From contig NZ_JAUSQV010000001.1 in assembly GCF_030811475.1 (NCBI RefSeq), positions 3,483,001 to 3,547,000 on the forward strand: a stretch of DNA of 64,000 bases, read 5' to 3'. The stretch is from Nakamurella flavida. GTDB lineage: Bacteria; Actinomycetota; Actinomycetes; Mycobacteriales; Nakamurellaceae. Positions 33,280-64,000 of the stretch are shown here, piece by piece. A program made the translations under genes and the position numbers. Within the stretch, counting starts at the first letter, position 1. Each line of letters begins with the position of its first letter. The notes under the pieces were generated by a model. It saw only the letters and a list, made by a program, of their open reading frames with translations, did no database searches and had not been told where the DNA came from.

Positions 33280-33744
33280 GTGGCTGCCGGTGCGGCTGAC
33301 GCCGCGCTGATCCGCCGGGCCCTCGCGGTGGCGCGGACGGCCCCACCGGGGGATGTCCCGATCGGCGCGGTCGTGCTGGACGCGTCCGGGCGAGAGCTCG
33401 CCACCGGCGTGAACGATCGCGAGGCCACCGGCGATCCGACCGGTCATGCCGAGATCGTCGCCCTGCGCGCGGCGGCGGCGGCCACCGGATCCTGGAATTT
33501 GGCCGGCTGCATCCTCGCGGTGACGGTCGAGCCCTGCACGATGTGCGCCGGCGCGTTGGTCGCCGCGCGGGTGGCCCGGCTGGTGTTCGGCTGCTGGGAG
33601 CCCAAGACCGGAGCGGTCGGCTCGCTCTGGGACGTGGTGCGGGACCGCCGGGTGATGCACCGGGTGGAGGTCCGCGGAGGCGTCCTCGAGCAGGAGTGCG
33701 CCGCACCCCTGCTCGAGTTCTTCACCGGCCTGCGTCAGCGCTGA
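33280..33744 (+). CDS. tadA: tRNA adenosine(34) deaminase TadA
   Basis: A 154-residue zinc deaminase that converts the wobble adenosine of tRNA-Arg(ACG) to inosine. The active site is HAE (56-58, zinc His and catalytic Glu) and PCTMC (85-89, the two zinc Cys). Normal family length. GTG 33280 start, 11 bases after its associated protein. Its last 10 bases overlap the end of the convergent MFS exporter gene. Confidence 0.95.
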   Translation: MAAGAADAALIRRALAVARTAPPGDVPIGAVVLDASGRELATGVNDREATGDPTGHAEIVALRAAAAATGSWNLAGCILAVTVEPCTMCAGALVAARVARLVFGCWEPKTGAVGSLWDVVRDRRVMHRVEVRGGVLEQECAAPLLEFFTGLRQR

Positions 33745-35312
33745 GCGCGCGCCTGCTGCGGCCGCATGGCCACGAGGACCAGCACCGACGCGGCCAGGGC
33801 CACGACGACACCCAGTGCCGAGGTGGTGACCACGCCGGTGTCGAAGGCCTGGCGGGCCGTGGACATCAGCTGTATCGCGGCGCCCTGCGGCAGCTCGGCG
33901 GCCACCGTGGAGGCCCCGCCCAGCGTCTCGCCGGCCGCGGCCGCCTGCTCGGCGGTCAGGCCGGCGGGCAGCTGCACCGCGCTGCGGTAGGACGCGGTGA
34001 GGATGCTGCCCAGCACCGCGGTGCCGAGCACGGCGCCCAGCTCGTACGCCGTCTCGGAGATGGCCGACGCGGCGCCGGCTCGGGCCGGCGGGGCGGCGGT
34101 GAGCACGGCGTCGTTGGACAGCGTCTCGGCGGCACCGATGCCGGCGGACAGCACGACGAACGCGGCGGTCAGCCCGGCGGCCGTCGGGTTGTCGGCGACC
34201 ACGATGACGATCCCGTAGGCCACCGCGGACAGGGCGAACCCGGCGGCCATGATGATCCGCGGGCTGATCCAGCGGGTCAGCGGGACGACGGCCAGCCCGG
34301 CCGCGACGCTGCCGACCAGGCCCGGCAGCAGGGTGAGCCCGGCCTGCAGCGGGCTCAGGCCGAGCACCAGCTGCAGGTGCTGCGAGACGAAGAACAGGAA
34401 CCCGACCAGCGCGAAGATGGACAGCAGGTTGGCCAGCACCGCAGCGCTGAACACCCGGCTGTTGAACAAGCGCAGGTCGAGCATCGGCTGGGCGCGGTGC
34501 AGCTGGCGGCGCACGAACGTGACGCCGGCGGCCAGGCCGATGCCGACCGAGACCAGTGCGACATCGGTGACACCGTGCTCGGCGACGGTCTTGATGCCGA
34601 ACACCAGCGGCGCCATCGTGGCCAGGCTCAGCCCGATGCTGACCGGGTCGATCGGCGACGGGTTCGGGTCACGGGACTCCGGGACGAAGATAGGTGCGAG
34701 GACCAGCAGCACCAGCAGGACCGGGACGGCCATGAGGAAGACCGAACCCCACCAGAAGTGCTCGAGCAGCACACCGCCGACGACGGGGCCGAGGGCGGCG
34801 CCACCGGCGAACCCGGCGGCCCAGATGGCGATGGCCAGCCGACGCTGCTCGGCGTGTACGAACAGCGCGCGCAGCAGCGACAGCGTGGACGGCATGAGCA
34901 TGGCGCCGAAGAAGCCCAGCGCGGCGCGGCCGGCGATCAGCCAGCCGGTGGTCGGGGCGAACGCGGCCAGCGCGGAGACCACAGCGAAGCCGGCCGAGCC
35001 GATGAGCAGCAGCCGGCGCCGGCCGATGCGGTCGGCCATGCTGCCCATGGAGACCAGCAGGGCGGCCAGAACCAGGGGATAGATGTCGACGATCCACAGC
35101 AGCCCGGTGCCCGAGGGGGACAGGGCAGCGGCGATCGACGGGAGCGCGAAGCTCAGCACGGTGTTGTCGACCGCGACGAGCAGCACGGGAAGCATCAGGA
35201 CGGCCAGGGCGATCCACTCGCGCACGCCGGCGCGGGGGGTGTCGTGGCTGGTCAGGGCTCGCTCGTCGCGGACGGCGGTTTCGCCGGAGACGCGGGAGAG
35301 GGCGGTGGACAT
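33735..35312 (-). CDS. DHA2-type MFS multidrug exporter (QacA/EmrB-like)
   Basis: A 525-residue exporter with fourteen predicted helices. Motif A is GSMADRIGRRRLLLIG and motif C-like Gly/Pro patterns follow (GAALGPVVGGVLL). The DxT of VAVDNTVLSFALP in helix 1 is the typical D1 mark of drug:H+ antiporter family 2. ATG 35312 has a GAAGGAA site. The divergent TetR gene with a palindrome between them indicates repression by that regulator. Likely substrates are lipophilic cations or antibiotics, not known here. Confidence 0.88.
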   Translation of the reverse strand: MSTALSRVSGETAVRDERALTSHDTPRAGVREWIALAVLMLPVLLVAVDNTVLSFALPSIAAALSPSGTGLLWIVDIYPLVLAALLVSMGSMADRIGRRRLLLIGSAGFAVVSALAAFAPTTGWLIAGRAALGFFGAMLMPSTLSLLRALFVHAEQRRLAIAIWAAGFAGGAALGPVVGGVLLEHFWWGSVFLMAVPVLLVLLVLAPIFVPESRDPNPSPIDPVSIGLSLATMAPLVFGIKTVAEHGVTDVALVSVGIGLAAGVTFVRRQLHRAQPMLDLRLFNSRVFSAAVLANLLSIFALVGFLFFVSQHLQLVLGLSPLQAGLTLLPGLVGSVAAGLAVVPLTRWISPRIIMAAGFALSAVAYGIVIVVADNPTAAGLTAAFVVLSAGIGAAETLSNDAVLTAAPPARAGAASAISETAYELGAVLGTAVLGSILTASYRSAVQLPAGLTAEQAAAAGETLGGASTVAAELPQGAAIQLMSTARQAFDTGVVTTSALGVVVALAASVLVLVAMRPQQARAQR

Positions 35313-35362
35313 GCTGCACTTCCTTCGATCTGGACGGAGCAAGGTGGCTCCGGTCGTTACTG

Positions 35363-35378: not shown

Positions 35379-35477
35379 TTGGGATCAACAGAGCCGTGGT
35401 CACGTCTATTCCTGGAGCTCAGCGGCGGCTCGGTGATACGCGCAGGTCCGGCGCCTACCGGCCGGTACGGTGACCGC

Positions 35478-52883: not shown

Positions 52884-54158
<1,275 letters not shown>

Positions 54159-54159
54159 G

Positions 54160-55392
54160 TCAGGACCGGGCCTTCTGCGGACCGATCCCCCGGCAGGCGA
54201 TGACGCCGGCGGTGATGAGCACGGCCAGCGAGGCCGTCAGGCCCAGGAGCGGGACCGTCCAGCCGCCGGTGGCGTCGTGCAGGCCACCGATCACCGACGG
54301 ACCGGTGGCGGCGAGCACGTACCCGAAGGTCTGCACGATGGACGACAGACGCCGGTTCTCCCGCTGGGTGCTGGTGCGCACCACCACCACCGTGAAGACG
54401 AGGGTGAACGCGGACCCCTGCGCGATGCCGCCGAAGCTCGCCCACAGCGGGAACAGGCCGGGCGCGAAGAGCAGTCCCAGGGGTACCGACAGCCAGAAGA
54501 AGCCCAGCGCGATCATCCCGGGCAGCGGGCCACGCCGGTTGATGATCACCGGCATCCCGAACGCACCGACGATGGCGAACACCTGGAACAGCGACGACGC
54601 GAGCCCGGCCGAACCTTCGGACAGGCCGCGGGTGTCGGCCAGCAGCTTGGGCAGCCAGGCGGTCAGCCCGTAGTAGGAGAACGCCTGGGCGGCGAAGGCC
54701 AGGGTGAGCAACCAGGTCAGCGGCCGGCGCCACAGCGGTGCCGTCGGGGGTGCGGGCGGCGCCGGTTCCCCGGCGGGTCCCGGCCGGACCGTTCGTTCGA
54801 CGGCCGCCGGTCGGGTACGGCGGCGCACCAGCAGGAACGTCCACAGCACGGCCGCGAGCACGGCGGGCACGAGCCACGCGGCCAGCGCGATGCGCCAACC
54901 GAACGTGGCCGTCAGCCCGGGGGAGAGGATCAGCGCGGCCATCGAGCCGACGTTCATGATCGCCGTGTAGGCACCGGTCACCATGGCGACCTGGCCGCGG
55001 AAGTCCCGGCCGATGATGACCGGGGTGGCCACGTTGCCGACCGTGATGCCCGCGCCGATGAGCGCCGTCCCGATGAGCGCGGTGACGTACCCACCGGAGG
55101 ACCGCACGCCCAGCCCGGCCGCGAGCAGGGCCAGGGCCAGCAGGACGGACCGGTCCAGGCCCAGGCGACCGATGGCGGCGGAGGCCGCCGGGGCCAGCAG
55201 TCCGAAGCACAGCACCGGCAGGCTGGTCAGCAGGCCGAGTGCCGCCCCGCTCAGGGCCAGGTCGCCGCTGATCGGGCCGGTCACCGCCGAGACGGAGACC
55301 ACCGGTCCCCGCAGGTTCGACGCGAAGAGCAGCACCGCGACGAGCAGCAGGACCGGGAAGGCCGCCGGGGCGAGGCGTTCCCGGTTCGTCAC
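54160..55392 (-). CDS. CynX/NimT-type MFS transporter
   Basis: A 410-residue protein with twelve helices in two halves. The CynX/NimT marks are ASNLRGPVVSVSAVTGPI in helix 1 and GNVATPVIIGRDF, with the second half starting PLTWLLTLAFAAQAFSYYGL. GTG 55392 overlaps the stop of the YhhQ-type gene (GTGA), so the two are coupled. CynX/NimT proteins take up or expel small anions and nitrogen compounds. Because it is coupled to a queuosine-precursor transporter, it may also handle a purine-like compound, but that is inference. Confidence 0.85.
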   Translation of the reverse strand: MTNRERLAPAAFPVLLLVAVLLFASNLRGPVVSVSAVTGPISGDLALSGAALGLLTSLPVLCFGLLAPAASAAIGRLGLDRSVLLALALLAAGLGVRSSGGYVTALIGTALIGAGITVGNVATPVIIGRDFRGQVAMVTGAYTAIMNVGSMAALILSPGLTATFGWRIALAAWLVPAVLAAVLWTFLLVRRRTRPAAVERTVRPGPAGEPAPPAPPTAPLWRRPLTWLLTLAFAAQAFSYYGLTAWLPKLLADTRGLSEGSAGLASSLFQVFAIVGAFGMPVIINRRGPLPGMIALGFFWLSVPLGLLFAPGLFPLWASFGGIAQGSAFTLVFTVVVVRTSTQRENRRLSSIVQTFGYVLAATGPSVIGGLHDATGGWTVPLLGLTASLAVLITAGVIACRGIGPQKARS

Positions 55393-56096
55393 CCGCGCGC
55401 GGCCGTCCCGGCGAGCGCCTGCGCGTAGCTCGGCTCCCGCCGCTTGACCAGCGCGATCACCCGGTAGGTGACCGGCAGCAGGATGACCTCGAGCAGGCAC
55501 TTGTAGACGAAGCCGACCACCACGTAGCTGATGAAGTCGCCGGTGGTGACGATGCCGATGACCCCCGCGGCGATCGCGCAGAACACCAGGGTGTCGCCGA
55601 ACTCGCCGACCACGGTCGAACCGATCAGCCGCGCCCAGAGGTGCTTCTCCTTGGTGCGCTCCTTGATCTTCACCAGCACCACGGCGTTGAGGAACTGGCC
55701 GATCAGGTACCCGCAGACGCTGGCCAGCACGATGCGCGGGACGAAGCCCAGCACCGCCTCGAACGCGGCCTGATTCGGGTAGCCGTCCACCGCCGGGGAG
55801 ATCTGCACCAGGTAGAAGGTCACCGAGGCGATCACCGCCATGACGAAGCCGACCAGGATGGTGCGGCGCATCGCCTTGAGGCCGTAGACCTCGGCGATGA
55901 CGTCACCGATGACGTAGGTGAGCGGAAAGACGAAGGCGCCGCCGTCGGTGATGATCGAGCCGAAGGCGATGCCCTTGGTGGCGGCGATGTTGGAGATGAG
56001 CAGCAGCGAGCAGAAGGCGGCCATCAGCACCGCGAACGAGCTGGACCCGATGCGGGCGAAGGCGGGGCCGGGGGCGGCGGTGTCGGGAGTTGTCAC
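55389..56096 (-). CDS. yhhQ: Queuosine-precursor transporter (YhhQ/VUT family)
   Basis: A 235-residue membrane protein with six to seven helices. Family signatures: ISNIAATKGIAFGSIITDGGAF-type first block, PLTYVIGDVIAEVYG, VGEFGDTLVF and the FVYKCLLEV end. YhhQ-type proteins import preQ0, preQ1 or queuine. Start: GTG 56096 with AGGGGG upstream (spacing long), or TTG 56108. It lies between gluQ and the CynX-like gene and close to tgt, supporting the assignment. Confidence 0.9.
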   Translation of the reverse strand: MTTPDTAAPGPAFARIGSSSFAVLMAAFCSLLLISNIAATKGIAFGSIITDGGAFVFPLTYVIGDVIAEVYGLKAMRRTILVGFVMAVIASVTFYLVQISPAVDGYPNQAAFEAVLGFVPRIVLASVCGYLIGQFLNAVVLVKIKERTKEKHLWARLIGSTVVGEFGDTLVFCAIAAGVIGIVTTGDFISYVVVGFVYKCLLEVILLPVTYRVIALVKRREPSYAQALAGTAARG

Positions 56097-56147
56097 CGGG
56101 TCATCCAACCCCCTCGGCGGGCACTCCTCCGCACCCGACCGCGAGGG

Positions 56148-57068
56148 TCACAGCAGGGCGGGGTCGACGATCCACGGCCCGGCGGGCAGGGCGGCCGGAT
56201 CGAAGCCGTCGAGCATGTCCTGCGGGGTCCCGGTCAGGCCGACGGACGCGGCGATGACGGCCAGCACCTGCTCGGCGTTCCGGCCCCGGGCGGCCAGGTC
56301 GGCGAGCGTCACGGCGCCGTCCCGCTTGGCCAGCCGCCGGCCGTCGCCGTTCAGGGCCAGGGGCACGTGGGCGTAGGTGACGGGCGGCAGCCCGAGCAGG
56401 TGGCCCAGGTAGGCCTGCCGCGGGGCTGAGGTGAGCAGGTCGTCGCCGCGCACCACCTGGTCGACGCCCTGGGCCGCGTCGTCGACGACCACCGCCAGGT
56501 TGTAGGCGGCGAGCCCGTCGTTGCGGCGGAGCACCACGTCGTCCACCCGGCCGGTGAACGAGCCGTGCAGCAGGTCGGCCACCGTCCAGGTCTCCCGGGC
56601 GGCCCGGAGCCGCCAGGCCGGCCGGCGTCCCGCCGCGACCCGGTCGGCGATGTCCGCGGGCGTGAGCGATCGGCAGGTCCCCGGGTAGGCCAGGTCCGCG
56701 GCGGGCGCGGCGTCCCCCACCACCTGGGGGGCCGAGGCCGCCTCCCGGATCTCCCGCCGGGTGCAGAAGCACGGATAGGCGAACCCGTCGGCGGACAACG
56801 CGTCCACCGCGGCGTCGTACCGGTCGGTCCGCGCCGACTGCCGGACCACCGGTGGGTCCCAGTCCAGGCCGAGAGCGGCCAGGTCGCTCAGCTGACGCTC
56901 CTCGGCGCCCGCGGCGACCCGGTCCAGATCCTCCACCCGCAGCAGGAAGGCCCGGCCGGTCGACCGGGCGAACAGCCAGGCGAGCAGGGCCGTCCGCAGG
57001 TTGCCGACGTGCAGATCGCCCGACGGGCTGGGCGCGAACCGCCCGGCGCCCGGGGCCGGAAGCGTCAG
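56148..57068 (-). CDS. gluQ: Glutamyl-Q tRNA(Asp) synthetase, apparently CTG start
   Basis: A 306-residue truncated glutamyl-tRNA synthetase that attaches glutamate to queuosine in tRNA-Asp. Blocks: GRFAPSPSGDLHVGN with the HIGH-equivalent HVGN (20-23), the zinc set C100-x-C102 and Y128-x3-C132, and RRLAKRDGAV as KMSKS-equivalent. No ATG, GTG or TTG occurs in frame before codon 45; starting there would delete the ATP-binding HVGN motif. A CTG at 57066-57068 overlaps the TGA of the preceding gene (CTGA), exactly as GTGA and ATGA overlaps do elsewhere here, so CTG is the likely start. Confidence 0.88.
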   Translation of the reverse strand: MTLPAPGAGRFAPSPSGDLHVGNLRTALLAWLFARSTGRAFLLRVEDLDRVAAGAEERQLSDLAALGLDWDPPVVRQSARTDRYDAAVDALSADGFAYPCFCTRREIREAASAPQVVGDAAPAADLAYPGTCRSLTPADIADRVAAGRRPAWRLRAARETWTVADLLHGSFTGRVDDVVLRRNDGLAAYNLAVVVDDAAQGVDQVVRGDDLLTSAPRQAYLGHLLGLPPVTYAHVPLALNGDGRRLAKRDGAVTLADLAARGRNAEQVLAVIAASVGLTGTPQDMLDGFDPAALPAGPWIVDPALL

Positions 57069-57574
57069 AACGGCATCCAGGGCGTGGCCACGGTGAGATC
57101 GCCGACCCGGCAGCGGATGCGGACCGGCCCGGCGTCGCGCGGCCGGTCCAGGCTGAACATGCCCTCCTCGTCGGACTGCACCTCCACGGCGAAGCCCGAC
57201 CCGAACTCGACGGTGGCCGTCCCCGCCGCGGCGGGGATCAGCTGGCCGCGGAGCACGTCCGCCTCGACCTCGACGTCCAGCGTGAGCGATGGTGAGGCGA
57301 AGGTCAGCTGCCGGGGTTCGTCCACGGAGGTGGTGCGCACGAGGGCCGGATCGTCCAGGGCCGAGTCGTAGGTCAGGGCCAGCGTCGCGGCGGTCAGCTC
57401 GGCGAGCTCCGCGTCGACGGTGCGCCAGGTGAAGGCGGCCTGCGCCGATCGGCGGTAGCGCTCCGGGACGTCCTGGGCCTCCCGGGCCGCGGCGGCGATC
57501 TCGGCCAGCAGCGCGGCGTCGGCGGCATCCCGACCGGCCGAACCGTCCTGGCCGTCGTCCTGGTGCTCCGTCAT
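57065..57574 (-). CDS. Uncharacterised 169-residue protein, coupled to gluQ
   Basis: Starts at ATG 57574 with GGAGG upstream; an earlier TGG-rich extension is dropped. The first third is helical and Ala/Asp-rich (AALLAEIAAAAREAQDVPERY, a region of about 20), then ALVRTTSVDEPRQLTF, and a beta-rich half ending RIRCRVGDLTVATPWMPF. From memory this pattern recurs in actinobacterial loci that carry CHAT and subtilase genes, where it may be a regulatory partner; I cannot verify this here. Its TGA overlaps the gluQ CTG. Confidence 0.6.
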   Translation of the reverse strand: MTEHQDDGQDGSAGRDAADAALLAEIAAAAREAQDVPERYRRSAQAAFTWRTVDAELAELTAATLALTYDSALDDPALVRTTSVDEPRQLTFASPSLTLDVEVEADVLRGQLIPAAAGTATVEFGSGFAVEVQSDEEGMFSLDRPRDAGPVRIRCRVGDLTVATPWMPF

Positions 57575-57759
57575 CTCCTCCACCTCCCGTCGGACTGCCA
57601 TTCTGCGCGACCGGCCCGCCCGGGGCGGCTTCCGGGTGGGGCGTGGCGCACCCTCACGACCGGACGGAGGTGCGGCGGCCCCCGGTGATACATCCCCGGG
57701 ACCTGCGCCGGGGCCGCCCCCGTGCCAGGCTGGGCGACCGGCAGACCAGGAGGATCGAC

Positions 57760-58161
57760 ATGCCCGTGACCCTGTCCCTGTTCACCCTGTACCGGGACCC
57801 CGCCGCAGCGGTCCGGTGGCTCGTCGAGGCGTTCGGCTTCGAGGTCGTCGCCCGGTTCGGCGCGGAGGACGGCAGCGTGGCCCACGCCGAGCTGCGGCTC
57901 GGCGACGCCGTGGTGATGGTGCAGGCGGCCGACGGGCACGCCCCGGCCCCGCTGGTGGGCACGTCGACCAGCCGCGCTCCCGTCCTCACGCTGGACGACG
58001 ACGCCGCCGTCGACGAGCTGTTCGCCCGGGTCGAGCGGGCCGGCGCCACGGTGCTGATCCCCCCGGAGACGACGGAGTGGGGCAACCATCGGTTCGAGGT
58101 CCTGGACCCGGAGGGTCACCAGTGGTCGGTCGGTACCCACCGGCCAGGCGCTGCCTGGTGA
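57760..58161 (+). CDS. VOC family (PhnB/glyoxalase-like) protein
   Basis: A 133-residue VOC protein, starting at ATG 57760 behind AGGAGG (6 bases). It has the YRDPAAAVRWLVEAFGFEVV opening of the PhnB/glyoxalase-resistance group, AELRLGDAVVMV, and the final FEVLDPEGHQWSVGTH. It lacks enough diagnostic residues to name a substrate. It is inserted on the plus strand between the 169-residue gene and the subtilase gene, converging with the latter at 4 bases. Confidence 0.85.
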   Translation: MPVTLSLFTLYRDPAAAVRWLVEAFGFEVVARFGAEDGSVAHAELRLGDAVVMVQAADGHAPAPLVGTSTSRAPVLTLDDDAAVDELFARVERAGATVLIPPETTEWGNHRFEVLDPEGHQWSVGTHRPGAAW

Positions 58162-58165
58162 CGGA

Positions 58166-59578
58166 TCAGCTGCCGGGCAGGATCTCCACGGCCACACCCA
58201 GCCCGGGGACCGGGACGCCGCGGGAGAGCACCTCGCGCAGGGCCGCTCTCGGGGTGAGCGTGGGATCGGCGCCCAGCAGCCGGGCGAGCGCGCCGACGAT
58301 CTGCGGGGCGGCGAACGACGTCCCGGTCCACGTGGCCCACGGGTCGGGCCCGTAGGTGTCGGGCGACGGGTCGACCGCGGGGGACAGCTGCGGGTTCTCC
58401 GTGCCCTCCACGTAGGTCGACAGCACCCCGCTGCCGACGGTCGCGCAGTCCACCCAGTGGCCGTGGTTGGAGTACGGGGCGCGCCGCCGGTCCACCCCCA
58501 GTGCGCCGACGGCGACGACGTCCCGGAACGCCGCCGGCCAGCACGGGTGGGTGGAGTCGCTGTTGCCCGCCGCGGCCACCACCAGCACGTCGGGGTGACG
58601 CTCGGCCAGCAGGTCCAGCGCCACCCGGAGCGCCGGCGGCGGCTGGTCGTCCTCGGTCTCCGAGCCCAGGGAGAGGTTGAGGATCCGGGCACCGTCGGCG
58701 GCCGCCCGCAGCATGGCGACGGCCACCGTCACCTCCGAACCGATCCCGTCGCTGTCCACCGCGCGCAGCACGCGGATGTCGGCGGACGGGGCGATCTGCT
58801 GCACGATGCCGGCCACGAAGGTGCCGTGGCCGGCGCCGAAGTCCAGGTAACCGTCCGGGGCGTCCAACGGGAACGCGTCCAGCGGGTCGGTGTTGGTCCC
58901 GGTGGCCAGACCGGTCAACCAGCCGTCGGTGCGGGGGATCGCGGTGACCCCCGAGTCGATGACGGCCACCGCCATCGCGGGGCTCCACACACCCACGTCG
59001 CCCGGGAACGGCAGCCCTTCGGCCGGTTCCGCCGCGCCCTCGCCCTTGAGGATCGGGCCCAGCGGGGTCACCGTGGTCAGCGACGCCGGGTACCCCAGCG
59101 CGCGCAGCCGGGCGGCCACCTCGCGCAGGGTGTCCACGGGCAGCGGCTCGGGCGTCCGCTGCAGCCGCACGATCCGCCCGTCGAGCTCGGGGACCGGGGT
59201 GGCGGACAGTCCGTGGTCGGCCAGCAGGTCGTCCACCGGGCCGCGGCGGAACCCGCGGTAGGACCCGTCGACGTCGGCGGCCAGCATGAGCAGTTCGTTG
59301 ACCACCAGCAGGGGCTCGGCCCGCCCGCGGTCCACGATCTCGAAGGCGATCGCGTCCCCCGGCTCCTCGTGGTCCAGTCCCCGACGCCGGCGTCGCTCCT
59401 GGACCAGATCGATCTGCCGGCGGAGGGCGGCCTGCGCGGCGGACGACGAACCCAGCAGGGCGGTCTGCCGGCGGGTGGCGGGGCCGGGTGCGGTGTCGGC
59501 ATCACCCGGCACGGCCCGACGGGTGTGGCCCAGGTCCGGGAACGGCACGCCCGGGGTGTCGGTGGAGTCCAGGCTCAC
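58166..59578 (-). CDS. S8 family serine peptidase (second subtilase), CHAT-linked
   Basis: A 470-residue subtilase with Asp208 (VAVIDSGV), His251 (GAGHGTFVAG), oxyanion Asn339 (AAAGNS) and Ser421 (TGTSFAAP). Residues 1-195 form an N-terminal extension: an Arg-rich helix (RRQIDLVQERRRRRGLDH) and a propeptide-like alpha/beta region ending near LGPILKGEG. There is no signal peptide, so it is probably cytosolic. GTG 59578 has a GAAGGA site; an earlier ORF start is less likely. It follows the CHAT gene by 117 bases on the same strand. Pairing of a caspase-like CHAT protein and a subtilase suggests a proteolytic cascade (inference). Confidence 0.9.
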   Translation of the reverse strand: MSLDSTDTPGVPFPDLGHTRRAVPGDADTAPGPATRRQTALLGSSSAAQAALRRQIDLVQERRRRRGLDHEEPGDAIAFEIVDRGRAEPLLVVNELLMLAADVDGSYRGFRRGPVDDLLADHGLSATPVPELDGRIVRLQRTPEPLPVDTLREVAARLRALGYPASLTTVTPLGPILKGEGAAEPAEGLPFPGDVGVWSPAMAVAVIDSGVTAIPRTDGWLTGLATGTNTDPLDAFPLDAPDGYLDFGAGHGTFVAGIVQQIAPSADIRVLRAVDSDGIGSEVTVAVAMLRAAADGARILNLSLGSETEDDQPPPALRVALDLLAERHPDVLVVAAAGNSDSTHPCWPAAFRDVVAVGALGVDRRRAPYSNHGHWVDCATVGSGVLSTYVEGTENPQLSPAVDPSPDTYGPDPWATWTGTSFAAPQIVGALARLLGADPTLTPRAALREVLSRGVPVPGLGVAVEILPGS

Positions 59579-59695
59579 GGCGGGTCCTTCGTTCTGTCTC
59601 GGTGCCCCGTCAGCTCGGTGCTCCCGACAGGCGGGTGGCGGCACCCTATCGCCGCTCGTCCCGCGGGGCGACGGCAGTTTCCTGCCGGGTCCGGG

Positions 59696-62308
59696 TCAGG
59701 AGCCGCCGTAGGCGTTGAAGGCGCACCAGCTGACGAAGTCCGCCGGATCCTCGGGGTCCATCCCGGTCCGTGCGGCGAACAGGGCGTCGGTGATCGTCTC
59801 GCCCGCGGCCAGGCCGGTGTGCAGGCGGCGCATCAGCGGGACGGCGGCCAGATCCGGGACCACCACGATGCTGGCGGCCAGACCGGCCGTGCCCCGGGCG
59901 ATCAGGGCGCTGACGAAGCCCAGCACCTCGTTCGCGGCGTACCCCGTGTCGGCCGCGGTGTTGCAGGCGGCGAGCACCATCCGGCGGGGGGCGATGCCGC
60001 GCAGGCCCATCTCGTGCAGGGTCAGCGGGCCGTCGGAGAGCTGCAGGGCGGAGAACATCGGATTGTCGGTGCGCAGGTGGCTGTGGCAGGCCAGATGGGC
60101 CAGGTCGGCCCGGCGCAGGGCCGCGGCCGCGGCTGCGGCCGTGCTGTCCGGGGGGAGCAGGACGAGGGGATCGGGGTGCGCCGTCCGGATGGCCGCGACC
60201 TCCTCGCGGGCCCCGGGGAGGTCGGGCCCGGCGATGAGTGCCACCGCGCCGGGCCCGTCGGGCGGTCGGGGCAGGCTGCCCCACCAGGACGCGGCCGACG
60301 GCGCGACGGTGACGGGCGACGACCACAGTGCCGACCACGGGATCCTCCGCAGCGCCCCCACCGGCACGGCCACCACCGGCACGTCCGTGGCCGTCCGCAG
60401 CGGCTCGACCAGCAGGGTGCGCAGGCCGGCCAGGCAGCGGTCGGCGGCCCGGCGGGCCGGTTCGGCCGGACCGCCCGGGCGGCTCAGCCGGCGGAGCGCG
60501 AACAGCAGGTCCCCGACCCGGGCGCGGACCTGGGCGACCGGCCCGAGCCGGACCACCCGGGTGCGCCGCGGTTCCACCACCGCGGCCAGGAGCTCGCCGT
60601 CCAGCACCGCGTACTCCACGAGCACCCGGCCGCCCAGGGTGCGGCGCAGGTCGGCGGGGGACACCACCGTCCGCGACCCGGACCGGTCGGCCCGGGCGCC
60701 GCGGGTCAGCCGGGCGATCCCGTCCTCGATCTCCCGCACCCGCGCCTGCAGCGGGGTGAGGTCGCCCGCGCCGGCCACGGTGGCCTCGGCCAGCTCGGTC
60801 TGCGCCGCCCGCAGCGCGACCAGGTCGTCGTCCACCGCCGGCCCGTCCACCGGTTCCACCGCCAGAAGGGCGGCCGCCCGGGTGCGCTCCATCCAGTCCA
60901 GTGCCCGGGAGCCGCTGCCGTCCCGCACCGCCTGGGTGAGCCCGAGCCGGCCCAGCTCGGCGCCGTGCGCCGAGGCGAGCACCCGCAGCTCCAGCGAGGC
61001 GAACGCCGCCCGATGACGGTCCAGGTCGGCCAGGCCCGCCCGGGCCTGGCGCAGCACACCGGCCCCGTCCCGGTCCAGCTCGGCGCTCAGCCCGGCGGCG
61101 ATCCGGCCCCGGATGCGGACCAGCACCGGGGCCGGCGCGGCCAGGGCCGCGGCCCGCTCCAGGTGCCGCCGCGCGACGGCCGGGCGGTGCAGACCGACGG
61201 CGAGCCGTCCGCTCACCAGATGCGCCTCCACCGCGGCGCTGGCGGCCCCCAGCCCGTCCAGCGTGCGGGCGGCCCGCACGGCGCGCACCAGGTCGGCCCC
61301 GTCGGGACCCGTGTCCGACAGACGTGCCTGCACGCCGATGACCGCGGCCCGGGCGGCCAGCACCCCGCGGCGCTGTCCGCGCAGGGTGCGTTCGGCCCGG
61401 TCCGCGGCCGTAGCCGCCCCGAGGTGGTCACCGGCCAGCAGGGCCAGCGAGGCCACCCGCAGCTCGCCGTCCGCGGCCATCAGGTCGACGCCGTGGGCCC
61501 GGAACTCCCGCACCGCGCGGTCGGCCACTGCGCGCGCCTCGTCGATCAGGCGCAGGTCGGCGAGCGCGTCGACGTACTCCAGGTGGTGCTCACCGGGCGG
61601 GATGCCGGCGGCCGCGTAGAGCGGCACCGCCGCCTCGAACGCCGCGACGGCCTCCAGCAGTCGGCCGGCCTGCAGCGTCGCCCATGCCCGGCTGGTCGCC
61701 ACCCCGGCCCGCAGCCCGGGCAGCTCACGGGCGTGCCCCTCGGCGGCGTCCAGGTAGCGCGACGCCAGCGCCGGGCGACCGGCCTGCGCGTGGATCAGGG
61801 CGAGGTTGTTGGCCGCGACGGCGAGGGCGCGGGCCGAACCGCCGCGCTCCCGCAGCACCCGCTCGTAGAGCCCGCGGGACTCGGCCGACCGCCCCAGGTT
61901 CTGCAGCAGCACCGCCCGGGCCAGCCAGAGATCGGGGGTGGCCCGCGCGGTCAGCGTGCCGGCCGCCCGGACGTCGGCGGCCGCGGCGGCGGACCGACCC
62001 CGCTCCAGGTTCACGCTGGCCCGGCTGAGCAGGATCTCGACCAGGGGTTCGACGAGCGCGTGCCGCCTCGCCAGCCGGACGGCCCGGTCCAGCCGGCGGG
62101 CGGCCGCGGTGTGGTCCAGCGCGGACCGGTCCGCCCAGGCCAGCGCCCGCAGGGCGAGGACCAGGGCTTCCGGGACGGAGTCCGGACCGGCCTCCAGTTC
62201 GTCGACCAGGGCCTCGACGGCGGCCCGCTGACCCGCCGGATCGGCGGCGACCGCCGTGAAGGCGGCCCGGGCCCGCGCGAGCAGGGGGACCTCCGCCGTC
62301 ACCGTCAT
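59696..62308 (-). CDS. CHAT domain protein with TPR-like helical repeats
   Basis: An 870-residue protein. Residues about 1-560 are all helical, with TPR-like repeats (e.g. AVAANNLALIHAQAGRPALA; LLEAVAAFEAAVPLYAAAG). The C-terminal 270 residues are a CHAT domain, a caspase-type protease: the dyad is His742 (LAHLACHSHL) and Cys782 (MVLAACNTA). ATG 62308 overlaps the stop of the membrane protein gene (ATGA). The TPR part would be a sensor or scaffold which controls the caspase-like part. Known CHAT proteases act in eukaryotic separase-like and bacterial immunity systems (for instance the gRAMP-associated TPR-CHAT); this one has no CRISPR partner here. Confidence 0.9.
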   Translation of the reverse strand: MTVTAEVPLLARARAAFTAVAADPAGQRAAVEALVDELEAGPDSVPEALVLALRALAWADRSALDHTAAARRLDRAVRLARRHALVEPLVEILLSRASVNLERGRSAAAAADVRAAGTLTARATPDLWLARAVLLQNLGRSAESRGLYERVLRERGGSARALAVAANNLALIHAQAGRPALASRYLDAAEGHARELPGLRAGVATSRAWATLQAGRLLEAVAAFEAAVPLYAAAGIPPGEHHLEYVDALADLRLIDEARAVADRAVREFRAHGVDLMAADGELRVASLALLAGDHLGAATAADRAERTLRGQRRGVLAARAAVIGVQARLSDTGPDGADLVRAVRAARTLDGLGAASAAVEAHLVSGRLAVGLHRPAVARRHLERAAALAAPAPVLVRIRGRIAAGLSAELDRDGAGVLRQARAGLADLDRHRAAFASLELRVLASAHGAELGRLGLTQAVRDGSGSRALDWMERTRAAALLAVEPVDGPAVDDDLVALRAAQTELAEATVAGAGDLTPLQARVREIEDGIARLTRGARADRSGSRTVVSPADLRRTLGGRVLVEYAVLDGELLAAVVEPRRTRVVRLGPVAQVRARVGDLLFALRRLSRPGGPAEPARRAADRCLAGLRTLLVEPLRTATDVPVVAVPVGALRRIPWSALWSSPVTVAPSAASWWGSLPRPPDGPGAVALIAGPDLPGAREEVAAIRTAHPDPLVLLPPDSTAAAAAAALRRADLAHLACHSHLRTDNPMFSALQLSDGPLTLHEMGLRGIAPRRMVLAACNTAADTGYAANEVLGFVSALIARGTAGLAASIVVVPDLAAVPLMRRLHTGLAAGETITDALFAARTGMDPEDPADFVSWCAFNAYGGS

Positions 62309-63153
62309 CGTGGTGGCGCGGTCCGGGTGTCGGCGGGCGCTGAACCCTCGGTGGGTACGGAGCCGTCGGCGGGCAGGGTCACCGGGCTGCTGGGCAGGGC
62401 ACCGGGCGGCGGGGACGGGACGGCCAGCGACGGGCTGCCGGCCACGAGGTCGCCGAGCCATCCCCACCGCGGATCCCACCGGGCGTCGGTCTTCGCGGCC
62501 CGGGCCACGGCCCTGGCCATGCGCTTGGGCCCGTAGTTGTGGCGGGCCCACCACGAGCCGGGGCGGGCCAGGCGGACCGCGGTCACCCAGGCCACGATCG
62601 GGACGAACGTGCTGATCAGCGCGGAGCGGTACTTGCCCTTCAGGACGGCGACCAGGGCCAGGACGCCGTGCAGGATCAGGGCGGCGGTGAAGGTCAGCTG
62701 CAGGACGATGCCGCTCACCGAGACGTCCAGCTCGCCGAACGGGCTGAACCCGATGAGCCACAGCCCCAGGACGGCCGTGGTGAGCCCGATGAGCTCGACC
62801 GAGACGCGGCCCTCGGCCGACCAGTAGACGTCCTGCAGGTGCAGGATCAGCGCGAACTCGTCGAGCACCAGCGACATGCCGACACCGACCACCACGGCGG
62901 CCGACTCGATCCACGGGCTGCCCGGCGCCGCGATGGCCGTGATGGCGCCCGCGATGAGCAGGATGATGCCCGGGACCGCGTGGTGGACGTGCGTGCCGGA
63001 CGCGGAGACGTTGTTGCGGAACGGGCCCACGCCGGCCCGGATGGACCGGGTGATGATCCGGGTGAGCAGGAACGTCAGGACGAACGCCGCGAGCATCAGC
63101 AGCAGCGGCAGCTTTCCCTCGGCGATGATGTCGTTCCGCCACCAGCTGCCCAC
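62305..63153 (-). CDS. Integral membrane protein coupled to the CHAT gene
   Basis: A 282-residue protein with about six hydrophobic helices in residues 15-195 and a polar, basic then Pro/Ser-rich tail of about 80 residues. The loop GTHVHHAVPGI gives a HxHH motif at the start of helix 2, and DEFALILHLQDVYW carries further His and Asp at a membrane face, a possible metal or redox site. GTG 63153 start. ATGA overlap with the CHAT gene makes it the first gene of that operon, so it may be the membrane sensor or anchor. No family function known to me. Confidence 0.7.
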   Translation of the reverse strand: MGSWWRNDIIAEGKLPLLLMLAAFVLTFLLTRIITRSIRAGVGPFRNNVSASGTHVHHAVPGIILLIAGAITAIAAPGSPWIESAAVVVGVGMSLVLDEFALILHLQDVYWSAEGRVSVELIGLTTAVLGLWLIGFSPFGELDVSVSGIVLQLTFTAALILHGVLALVAVLKGKYRSALISTFVPIVAWVTAVRLARPGSWWARHNYGPKRMARAVARAAKTDARWDPRWGWLGDLVAGSPSLAVPSPPPGALPSSPVTLPADGSVPTEGSAPADTRTAPPR

Positions 63154-63354
63154 GCGAGCACTGTAGCCAGCGGTCCGTCCGCGTGGTGGGAGTTCGCCAT
63201 GCTCCTGCGGGCGCCGGTGCAGCCGTCGTCCGGGGGGTCACGGGCGGTCCGCCGGGATGGGGACAACCGGGTGGGGCTGTCGGGGGGAACCCCTACGGTG
63301 CAGGGACACCCGCCGGTCCCTCCGGTCGGGTCCCGTCCGCTCCGGAGGCCCGCC

Positions 63355-64000
63355 GTGCCCGCCGTATCCCCAGCTCCTGCGGTCGATTCCGCACCCGCGG
63401 TCGACTCCGCCGTCCGGGAGCGGGCCGAGCACCACCTGCGGGCCCTGGTCGGCTCGTCGGACGCCCGGCTGCGGGACGACCAGTGGACGGCCATCGAAGC
63501 GCTGGCCGAGCACTCCCGGCGGGCCCTGGTGGTGCAGCGGACCGGGTGGGGCAAGTCCGCGGTGTACTTCGTGGCCACCGCCCTGCTGCGGGAGCGGGGT
63601 GCCGGTCCGACGGTGATCATCTCGCCGCTGCTGGCCCTGATGCGCAACCAGATCGCCGCCGCCCAGCGCGCCGGCATCCGCGCGGTGACGGTCAACTCGA
63701 CGAACGCCGAGCAGTGGGCCCAGGTCTACGCCTCGGTCCGGGACGGCGAGGTCGACGTCCTGCTGGTCTCTCCGGAGCGGCTGAACAACCCCGGTTTCCG
63801 GGACGAGGTGCTCGGGGCGCTGGCCGCCTCGGCCGGCCTGGTCGTGGTGGACGAGGCGCACTGCATCTCCGACTGGGGCCACGACTTCCGGCCCGACTAC
63901 CGGCGGATCGCCACCATGCTGGCCGCGCTGCCGCAGGGCACGCCGGTGTTGGCCACCACGGCCACCGCCAATGCCCGGGTGGTCACCGACGTGGCCGAGC
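63355..64000 (+). CDS. RecQ-like DEAD/DEAH helicase, partial (runs off the window)
   Basis: The first 215 codons of a helicase start at GTG 63355 with GGAGG 6 bases ahead. Walker A is QRTGWGKSA (61-69), motif Ia SPLLALMRNQ, motif II DEAH (166-169) in VVDEAHCISDWGHDFRP, the RecQ-specific extension, and TATAN motif III. It is divergent from the membrane-CHAT-subtilase operon, 201 bases away; TACGGT near 63294 may be its -10 box. Downstream domains (RQC, HRDC, or a nuclease fusion) cannot be seen. Confidence 0.9.
   Translation, partial: MPAVSPAPAVDSAPAVDSAVRERAEHHLRALVGSSDARLRDDQWTAIEALAEHSRRALVVQRTGWGKSAVYFVATALLRERGAGPTVIISPLLALMRNQIAAAQRAGIRAVTVNSTNAEQWAQVYASVRDGEVDVLLVSPERLNNPGFRDEVLGALAASAGLVVVDEAHCISDWGHDFRPDYRRIATMLAALPQGTPVLATTATANARVVTDVAE

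What the first reader, a model, noticed from the sequence alone, without database searches (positions are those of the whole stretch)
58166..63153. Membrane protein - TPR-CHAT - subtilase operon
Seen: a six-helix protein with a HxHH motif, an 870-aa TPR-like protein with a CHAT dyad (His742/Cys782) and a subtilase with intact triad lie on one strand, the first two with an ATGA overlap. Known: CHAT domains are caspase-like proteases, and TPR-CHAT proteins act in some immunity systems. Inferred: a membrane-sensed proteolytic relay in which CHAT may activate the subtilase or both cut cell targets (stress or abortive response). No CRISPR or NLR partner is visible.
Basis: partly seen in the sequence, partly recalled or inferred. 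Interest (0 to 1): 0.7.

Follow-up and report, generated by a model that had tools for sequence, protein, structure and literature searches.

The report
Caspase-like protease sigma-factor switch cassette
A caspase-like protease gene and a subtilisin-like protease gene in this bacterium belong to a recurring actinobacterial gene set that also contains a gene-switching sigma factor and its likely inhibitor, so they probably form a protease-controlled gene switch similar to the one attached to some CRISPR systems, but without CRISPR.

Summary
The three genes are real and correctly described, but they are not the conserved unit. The membrane gene looks like a bystander: beside CHAT here and in one same-genus genome, and in 0 of 80 named loci fetched by CHAT alone. 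Of the 80 loci, P4 is in 72, subtilase in 70, sigma in 64, all four in 57. Across 61 genomes P4 occurs in 28 of 28 CHAT-positive and 2 of 33 CHAT-negative genomes. Sigma and P4 are adjacent on one strand in 65 of 67 cases. A spacing-specific promoter-like motif, TGTATCA-N15/16-GCTC, points into sigma and subtilase genes, and (one mismatch) into P4 in the window. CHAT resembles Csx29 of Craspase and the CHAT anti-sigma factor DdvA. Best reading: TPR-CHAT gates a sigma/P4 pair by proteolysis; free sigma induces itself and the cytoplasmic subtilase. Module membership is well supported; cleavage and inhibition are inferred.

The parts
59696..62308 (-). TPR-CHAT caspase-like protease, 870 aa; proposed sensor protease of the module
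58166..59578 (-). S8 subtilase, 470 aa, intact triad, no signal peptide or membrane segment found; proposed induced effector or second protease
57065..57601 (-). P4, 178 aa (a second ATG at 57574 follows a purine-rich stretch): N-terminal helices plus C-terminal Ig-like beta sandwich; proposed sigma-factor inhibitor and candidate CHAT substrate
57667..57692 (-). promoter-like motif TGTATCA-N15-CCTC upstream of P4 (10 of 11 positions of the motif TGTATCA-N15/16-GCTC)
62305..63153 (-). six-segment membrane protein with HVHH, overlapping the CHAT start by ATGA; probably a bystander
57760..58161 (+). VOC/glyoxalase-like gene (name recalled, not searched) lying between subtilase and P4; not seen as part of the module
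   Evidence: position only

Best explanation
The TPR-CHAT and subtilase genes are half of a four-gene regulatory module. The other half is an ECF-type sigma factor and P4, a small protein normally encoded directly behind it. Proposed mechanism: P4 binds and holds the sigma factor; the TPR-CHAT protease senses an unknown signal through its TPR superhelix and cleaves P4 (directly, or through the subtilase); the freed sigma factor transcribes its own sigma-P4 unit and the subtilase gene from TGTATCA-N15/16-GCTC promoters; the cytoplasmic subtilase then amplifies or executes the response. In the window genome the sigma gene sits about 0.77 Mb from the rest. Shown: gene content, co-occurrence, gene order, catalytic residues, the spacing-specific motif, fold similarity. 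Inferred: P4 inhibits the sigma factor, CHAT cleaves P4, the sigma factor reads the motif, what the subtilase does, and what the signal is.
For: (1) Linkage: in 80 loci chosen only by CHAT, P4 72, S8 70, sigma 64, all four 57. (2) Phylogenetic profile, 61 genomes: P4 in 28/28 CHAT+ and 2/33 CHAT-; sigma in 26/28 and 6/33 (Fisher in 108, not corrected for relatedness). (3) The split is bridged: the window genome has one CHAT, one P4 and one strong sigma match, 252 bits against 54 for the next; G009 and G048 also have their sigma on another contig than CHAT. (4) Sigma followed by P4 on the same strand in 65 of 67 cases, gap at most 41 bp in 58 of 65, the usual layout of sigma/anti-sigma pairs (general knowledge). 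(5) Motif: 41 sites at spacings 15/16, 0-3 at every other spacing from 8 to 25, shuffles mean about 2, 32 of 41 inside module spans; score 9 or more of 11 upstream of sigma in 35/67 forward, 5/67 reverse, 23/600 random stretches. (6) Precedents: the CHAT profile matches DdvA (E=6e-13) and Craspase TPR-CHAT (E=7.5e-7) in PDB sequences; the model matches Csx29 (8eey, 8e-13) and DdvA (8rw5, 1.2e-12) by Foldseek. In the Csx29 system the protease cleaves Csx30, an inhibitor of an ECF sigma factor (PMC10028731, passages). (7) Sequence distances pair sigma with P4 and CHAT with S8.
Against: No binding, cleavage or transcription was measured. P4 matches no anti-sigma family: its own Pfam and NCBIfam scans are empty, and family members match mainly CarboxypepD_reg (33 of 71, best 3.8e-7). 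The strongest distance correlations are within the pairs sigma-P4 and CHAT-S8 (0.68 and 0.80 on distant pairs); CHAT-P4 is only 0.40, which fits separately exchanged halves as well as a protease-substrate pair. The window's own sigma gene lacks the motif (6/11), and the window's S8, CHAT and membrane genes score 7, 0 and 7 of 11. Genome-wide the exact motif shows no clear excess: 19 matches against 14 for the reversed control in 20 genomes, and 4 in G003, which has no CHAT. Some loci keep CHAT and S8 without sigma and P4 nearby (6 of 80). Sigma genes without CHAT occur in 6 of 33 CHAT-negative genomes.
Confidence: 0.5

Rival explanations
1. Protease cascade: CHAT directly activates the subtilase (or the reverse), and the subtilase, not CHAT, destroys P4 or other cell proteins. 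The sigma factor only supplies feedback.
For: CHAT and S8 are the best-correlated pair (r=0.80 on distant pairs), are divergently adjacent in 59 of 70 loci with S8, and travel together when the module is split (window genome and G048). The subtilase has about 190 residues in front of the catalytic domain.
Against: Adjacent genes co-inherit anyway. The sigma factor and P4 are then left without an explained input. Some CHAT loci lack S8 (10 of 80), and in two loci a LuxR-type regulator (my reading of its sequence) stands in the place between P4 and CHAT.
Confidence: 0.25
2. An abortive-infection or stress-death system in which CHAT and S8 are toxic effectors and sigma/P4 merely controls their expression.
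For: Some CHAT members match the PADLOC BovA models (29 of 54, best 7.1e-8), and the subtilase matches a PADLOC subtilase model (7.3e-19) and weakly IetS. A myxobacterial sigma factor, DdvS, whose anti-sigma partner is the CHAT protein DdvA, controls an antiphage island (PMC12288465, passage).
Against: The window CHAT itself has no PADLOC match. The motif does not point into CHAT in most loci: score 9 or more forward in 4 of 80. No toxicity or phage data were available, and defence-island context was not tested.
Confidence: 0.15
3. One reading: the membrane protein senses and CHAT and subtilase respond.
For: ATGA overlap of membrane gene and CHAT; the same neighbour in G009.
Against: 0 of 80 named loci have the membrane gene in the flanks. 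It occurs in 13 of 28 CHAT+ and 11 of 33 CHAT- genomes, at other places where I compared coordinates.
Confidence: 0.05

Closest known systems
Craspase output arm (type III-E CRISPR: Csx29 TPR-CHAT, Csx30 inhibitor, CASP-sigma)
   Different: No RAMP-family protein in the whole genome and no array-like repeats in 54000-64000. The partner is P4, not recognisably Csx30, and a subtilase is added. Cleavage is not shown.
DdvS/DdvA, sigma factor and transmembrane CHAT anti-sigma factor (Myxococcus xanthus; organism from PMC4374960 and PMC12288465)
   Same: CHAT domain tied to an ECF sigma factor; best PDB sequence match of the CHAT profile (8rot, E=6.2e-13).
   Different: DdvA is described as transmembrane and is itself the anti-sigma factor (PDB title; passage). 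Here CHAT shows no membrane helix in the model, and the candidate anti-sigma is a separate protein.
Borvo (BovA), a single-gene CHAT defence system (function recalled)
   Same: 29 of 54 family members match PADLOC BovA models.
   Different: The window protein does not match; here CHAT comes with three partner genes.
Separase
   Different: Eukaryotic, different partners; only weak sequence similarity (E about 0.005).
ECF sigma/anti-sigma pairs regulated by proteolysis (RseA, RsiW type)
   Same: Sigma with the next gene coupled on the same strand, autoregulatory-looking promoter motif.
   Different: Proposed soluble cytoplasmic inhibitor and caspase-like protease instead of membrane anti-sigma and DegS/RseP-type proteases.

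Membership tests
CHAT proteases (clan CD) | CHAT domain above Pfam cut-off with His-Cys dyad | tested here: met
   96.1 bits against cut-off 24; H742 and C782 invariant in 54 aligned proteins
S8 subtilases | Asp-His-Ser triad in an S8 domain | tested here: met
T7SS mycosin | NCBIfam equivalog score, signal peptide and membrane anchor | tested here: not met
   95 bits against cut-off 278.75; highest 19-residue hydropathy 1.36 in the window protein
Type III-E CRISPR Craspase | RAMP-type Cas7-11/gRAMP effector in the genome | tested here: not met
   PF03787: 0 matches in the own genome, the control rings in 4 of 14 genomes
Type III-E CRISPR Craspase | TPR-CHAT (Csx29) architecture | tested here: met
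Type III-E CRISPR Craspase | Csx30-like substrate | tested here: inconclusive
   P4 profile against PDB sequences and P4 model against PDB gave no specific relative
ECF sigma factors (partner gene outside the window) | sigma region 2 and region 4, no more, about 200 aa | tested here: met
   Sigma70_r2 in 14 of 14 members, region 4 models in only some at E<=0.001; PDB matches to ECF sigma factors across both regions; own-genome member 252 bits
Anti-sigma factors | gene directly behind the sigma gene | tested here: met
   65 of 67; in the window genome itself P4 and sigma are apart
Anti-sigma factors | binds and inhibits its sigma factor | not testable with these tools
   no complex prediction or assay available
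Anti-sigma factors | known anti-sigma domain | tested here: inconclusive
   no anti-sigma family among Pfam or NCBIfam matches of 71 P4 proteins at E<=0.1
DdvA-type CHAT anti-sigma | transmembrane segment between anti-sigma part and TPR-CHAT | tested here: not met
   model shows helical repeats and CHAT domain without a separate membrane helix; the only hydrophobic stretch of note starts at residue 808, inside the CHAT domain
Borvo (BovA) | match to PADLOC BovA model | tested here: not met
   window protein 0 matches, although 29 of 54 relatives match

The most novel reading that the evidence does not exclude
A CRISPR-free counterpart, possibly the ancestral form, of the Craspase output arm: a TPR-CHAT caspase-like protease that switches on an ECF sigma factor by destroying a small soluble inhibitor (P4), with a sigma-induced cytoplasmic subtilase as second protease. 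It would recur across actinobacteria as two exchangeable halves (sigma+P4 and CHAT+subtilase).
Probability: 0.4. Interest if true: 0.85.

Novelty: new variant of a known kind. Interest (0 to 1): 0.7.

Why it matters
Craspase has been read mainly as a CRISPR curiosity in which a caspase-like protease frees a sigma factor. If the same protease/sigma/inhibitor logic exists without CRISPR in many actinobacteria, the output arm may be an older, general signalling device that CRISPR borrowed, and DdvA would be a third form of it. It gives two unannotated families (P4 and this sigma subgroup) a testable role, names a promoter motif to test, and asks what the TPR superhelix senses when there is no guide RNA.

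Tried and rejected

Promoter motif: first read in the wrong direction (GAGC-N-TGATAC pointing away from the sigma gene); the reverse reading puts it 5' of sigma and subtilase genes. Limits: found and scored on the same 80 loci, near-identical loci not removed, score thresholds chosen after seeing the data, and the random stretches come from the same loci. Loci outside that set, tested afterwards: P4 and S8 of G009 10/11, sigma of G048 11/11, S8 of G048 10/11, S8 of G036 10/11, window P4 10/11; against: own sigma 6/11, G009 sigma 8/11, window S8 7, CHAT 0, membrane gene 7. G048, G036 and G009 had already shown motif-like sites, before the scoring. A genome-wide regulon was looked for and not found. 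The other motif-bearing genes outside modules share nothing I could name. Early tetramer/pentamer counts upstream of CHAT were at shuffle level.

Distance correlations are not corrected for the species tree, and all six pairs beat all 500 permutations.

Literature: ten searches of the held open-access library gave no paper on this gene set; subscription papers and preprints are mostly not held. The ECF classification paper and the DdvS paper that I wanted are not held. Papers seen: PMC10028731, PMC4374960 and PMC12288465 as passages; the others as listings with abstract beginnings.

Full report
OBSERVATION. The window's end is a high-GC actinobacterial chromosome stretch (G000 in the tool, one contig of 4.32 Mb). 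The CHAT dyad His742/Cys782, the ATGA overlap, the six hydrophobic segments with HVHH and the subtilase triad are all there.

THE MEMBRANE GENE IS PROBABLY NOT PART OF IT. Among 20 CHAT neighbourhoods from the window genome and relatives (chosen as the best of the matches), the membrane gene is beside CHAT in two: the window genome and G009 of the same genus. It is absent from the flanks of all 80 named loci. Across 61 genomes it is present in 13 of 28 CHAT-positive and 11 of 33 CHAT-negative genomes (p=0.43).

THE REAL PARTNERS. The same neighbourhoods carry a small protein, P4, and a sigma factor. The window has P4 at 57601-57065, just beyond the subtilase and separated from it by a gene on the other strand. 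In these, profile searches give P4 in 72, subtilase in 70, sigma in 64, all four in 57; six have CHAT and subtilase only, two CHAT only, and several of these lie near contig ends while others (for example L064, L082) do not. Profiles for these searches were built from the relatives' loci.

PRESENCE AND ABSENCE. In the same 61 genomes (thresholds: CHAT 1e-30, sigma 1e-30, P4 1e-6) CHAT is in 28, sigma in 32, P4 in 30. P4 is in 28 of 28 CHAT-positive and 2 of 33 CHAT-negative genomes; sigma in 26 of 28 and 6 of 33. The two CHAT genomes without sigma are G023 (460 contigs) and G024, where part of a sigma gene lies fused in frame with P4. One of the 28, G049, has only a weak CHAT match (3e-33) that is not next to its P4. 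These genomes are related, so the Fisher values (2e-15 and 3e-9) are overstated.

A SPLIT MODULE. The window genome has one CHAT of this family, one P4, and one strong sigma match at 4308607-4309170, 252 bits against 54 for the next sigma factor. It is about 0.77 Mb from CHAT and has no module gene beside it. G009 has its sigma on another contig, and G048 has sigma+P4 on one contig and CHAT+subtilase on another. The nearest relative of the window CHAT by score, L062 (48% identity), keeps sigma, P4, two CHAT genes and a subtilase together. The own sigma is closest to same-genus copies (66, 61 and 59% in L182, L179, L042), whereas CHAT is closest to L062, L034 and L033 from other families. The halves may therefore be exchanged separately. 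The distance correlations agree: on 51 loci, distant pairs, CHAT-S8 0.80, P4-sigma 0.68, the four cross pairs 0.24-0.41.

PROMOTER-LIKE MOTIF. GAGC-N-TGATAC, read in reverse as TGTATCA-N-GCTC, occurs 28 times with spacer 15 and 13 times with spacer 16 in the 80 loci, and 0-3 times at each other spacer from 8 to 25. Simple shuffles give about 2, and 32 of the 41 are inside module spans. Scored against TGTATCA-N15/16-GCTC, 35 of 67 sigma upstream regions reach 9 of 11 (5 of 67 on the reverse strand, 23 of 600 random stretches), 22 of 75 subtilase regions reach 10 (1 of 75 reverse, 20 of 600), while CHAT has 4 of 80 at 9 or more in its own direction. This suggests that the sigma factor drives itself, P4 and the subtilase, and that CHAT is expressed independently. 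In the window, P4 is preceded by TGTATCA-N15-CCTC at 57692-57667. Against: the window's own sigma gene has no such site, and no genome-wide excess was seen (19 matches, 14 in the reversed control, 20 genomes).

HOW IT MOST LIKELY WORKS. In type III-E systems Csx29 cleaves Csx30, which inhibits an ECF sigma factor (PMC10028731, passages). In Myxococcus a CHAT protein, DdvA, is itself the anti-sigma factor of DdvS (titles; PMC4374960 passage), and DdvS controls an antiphage island (PMC12288465 passage). The module here has a TPR-CHAT protease, an ECF sigma factor and a small protein coupled to it. The simplest reading is that P4 restrains the sigma factor and that proteolysis started by TPR-CHAT releases it; the subtilase is then induced and either finishes P4 (feedback) or acts on other targets. 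I put this at 0.5. That the four genes are a functional module I regard as well supported, about 0.9. The signal is unknown.

NOVELTY. Ten searches of the held library found no description of this gene set (listed under Tried and rejected). It works like the Craspase output arm but is not a member: the effector is absent and a Csx30 relation could not be shown. Hence new variant of a known kind.

Noticed in passing
window 52896-57050: Genes that look (by reading the translations, not searched) like tgt, a YhhQ-type transporter and a glutamyl-Q tRNA(Asp) synthetase lie next to P4, as in L035; a queuosine-salvage neighbourhood beside the module in this genus.
   Followed up: no
L038:2324-3010 and L045:7062-7943: A LuxR-type DNA-binding regulator (by reading its sequence) stands between P4 and CHAT in loci where no subtilase was found, so the fourth gene may be replaceable.
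   Followed up: partly
L173, L180 (genomes G027, G049): Sigma-P4 pairs with a diverged P4 and no CHAT or subtilase of this family in 16-18 kb; another small sigma-like reading frame lies just in front.
   Followed up: partly
L175, L176: Sigma factors of this subgroup without P4, next to large ATPase-like proteins of 924-985 aa.
   Followed up: no
L111 and L062: Two CHAT genes facing each other tail to tail; in L111 each has its own subtilase, sigma and P4.
   Followed up: no
L043:10496-11419: One open frame holding part of a sigma factor and a complete P4, a possible natural fusion or a decayed gene.
   Followed up: no
window 33735-35342 and 35415-35439: One exact motif copy lies just upstream of a transporter-like gene (MFS by reading); at 0.12 expected per window it may be chance.
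   Followed up: partly
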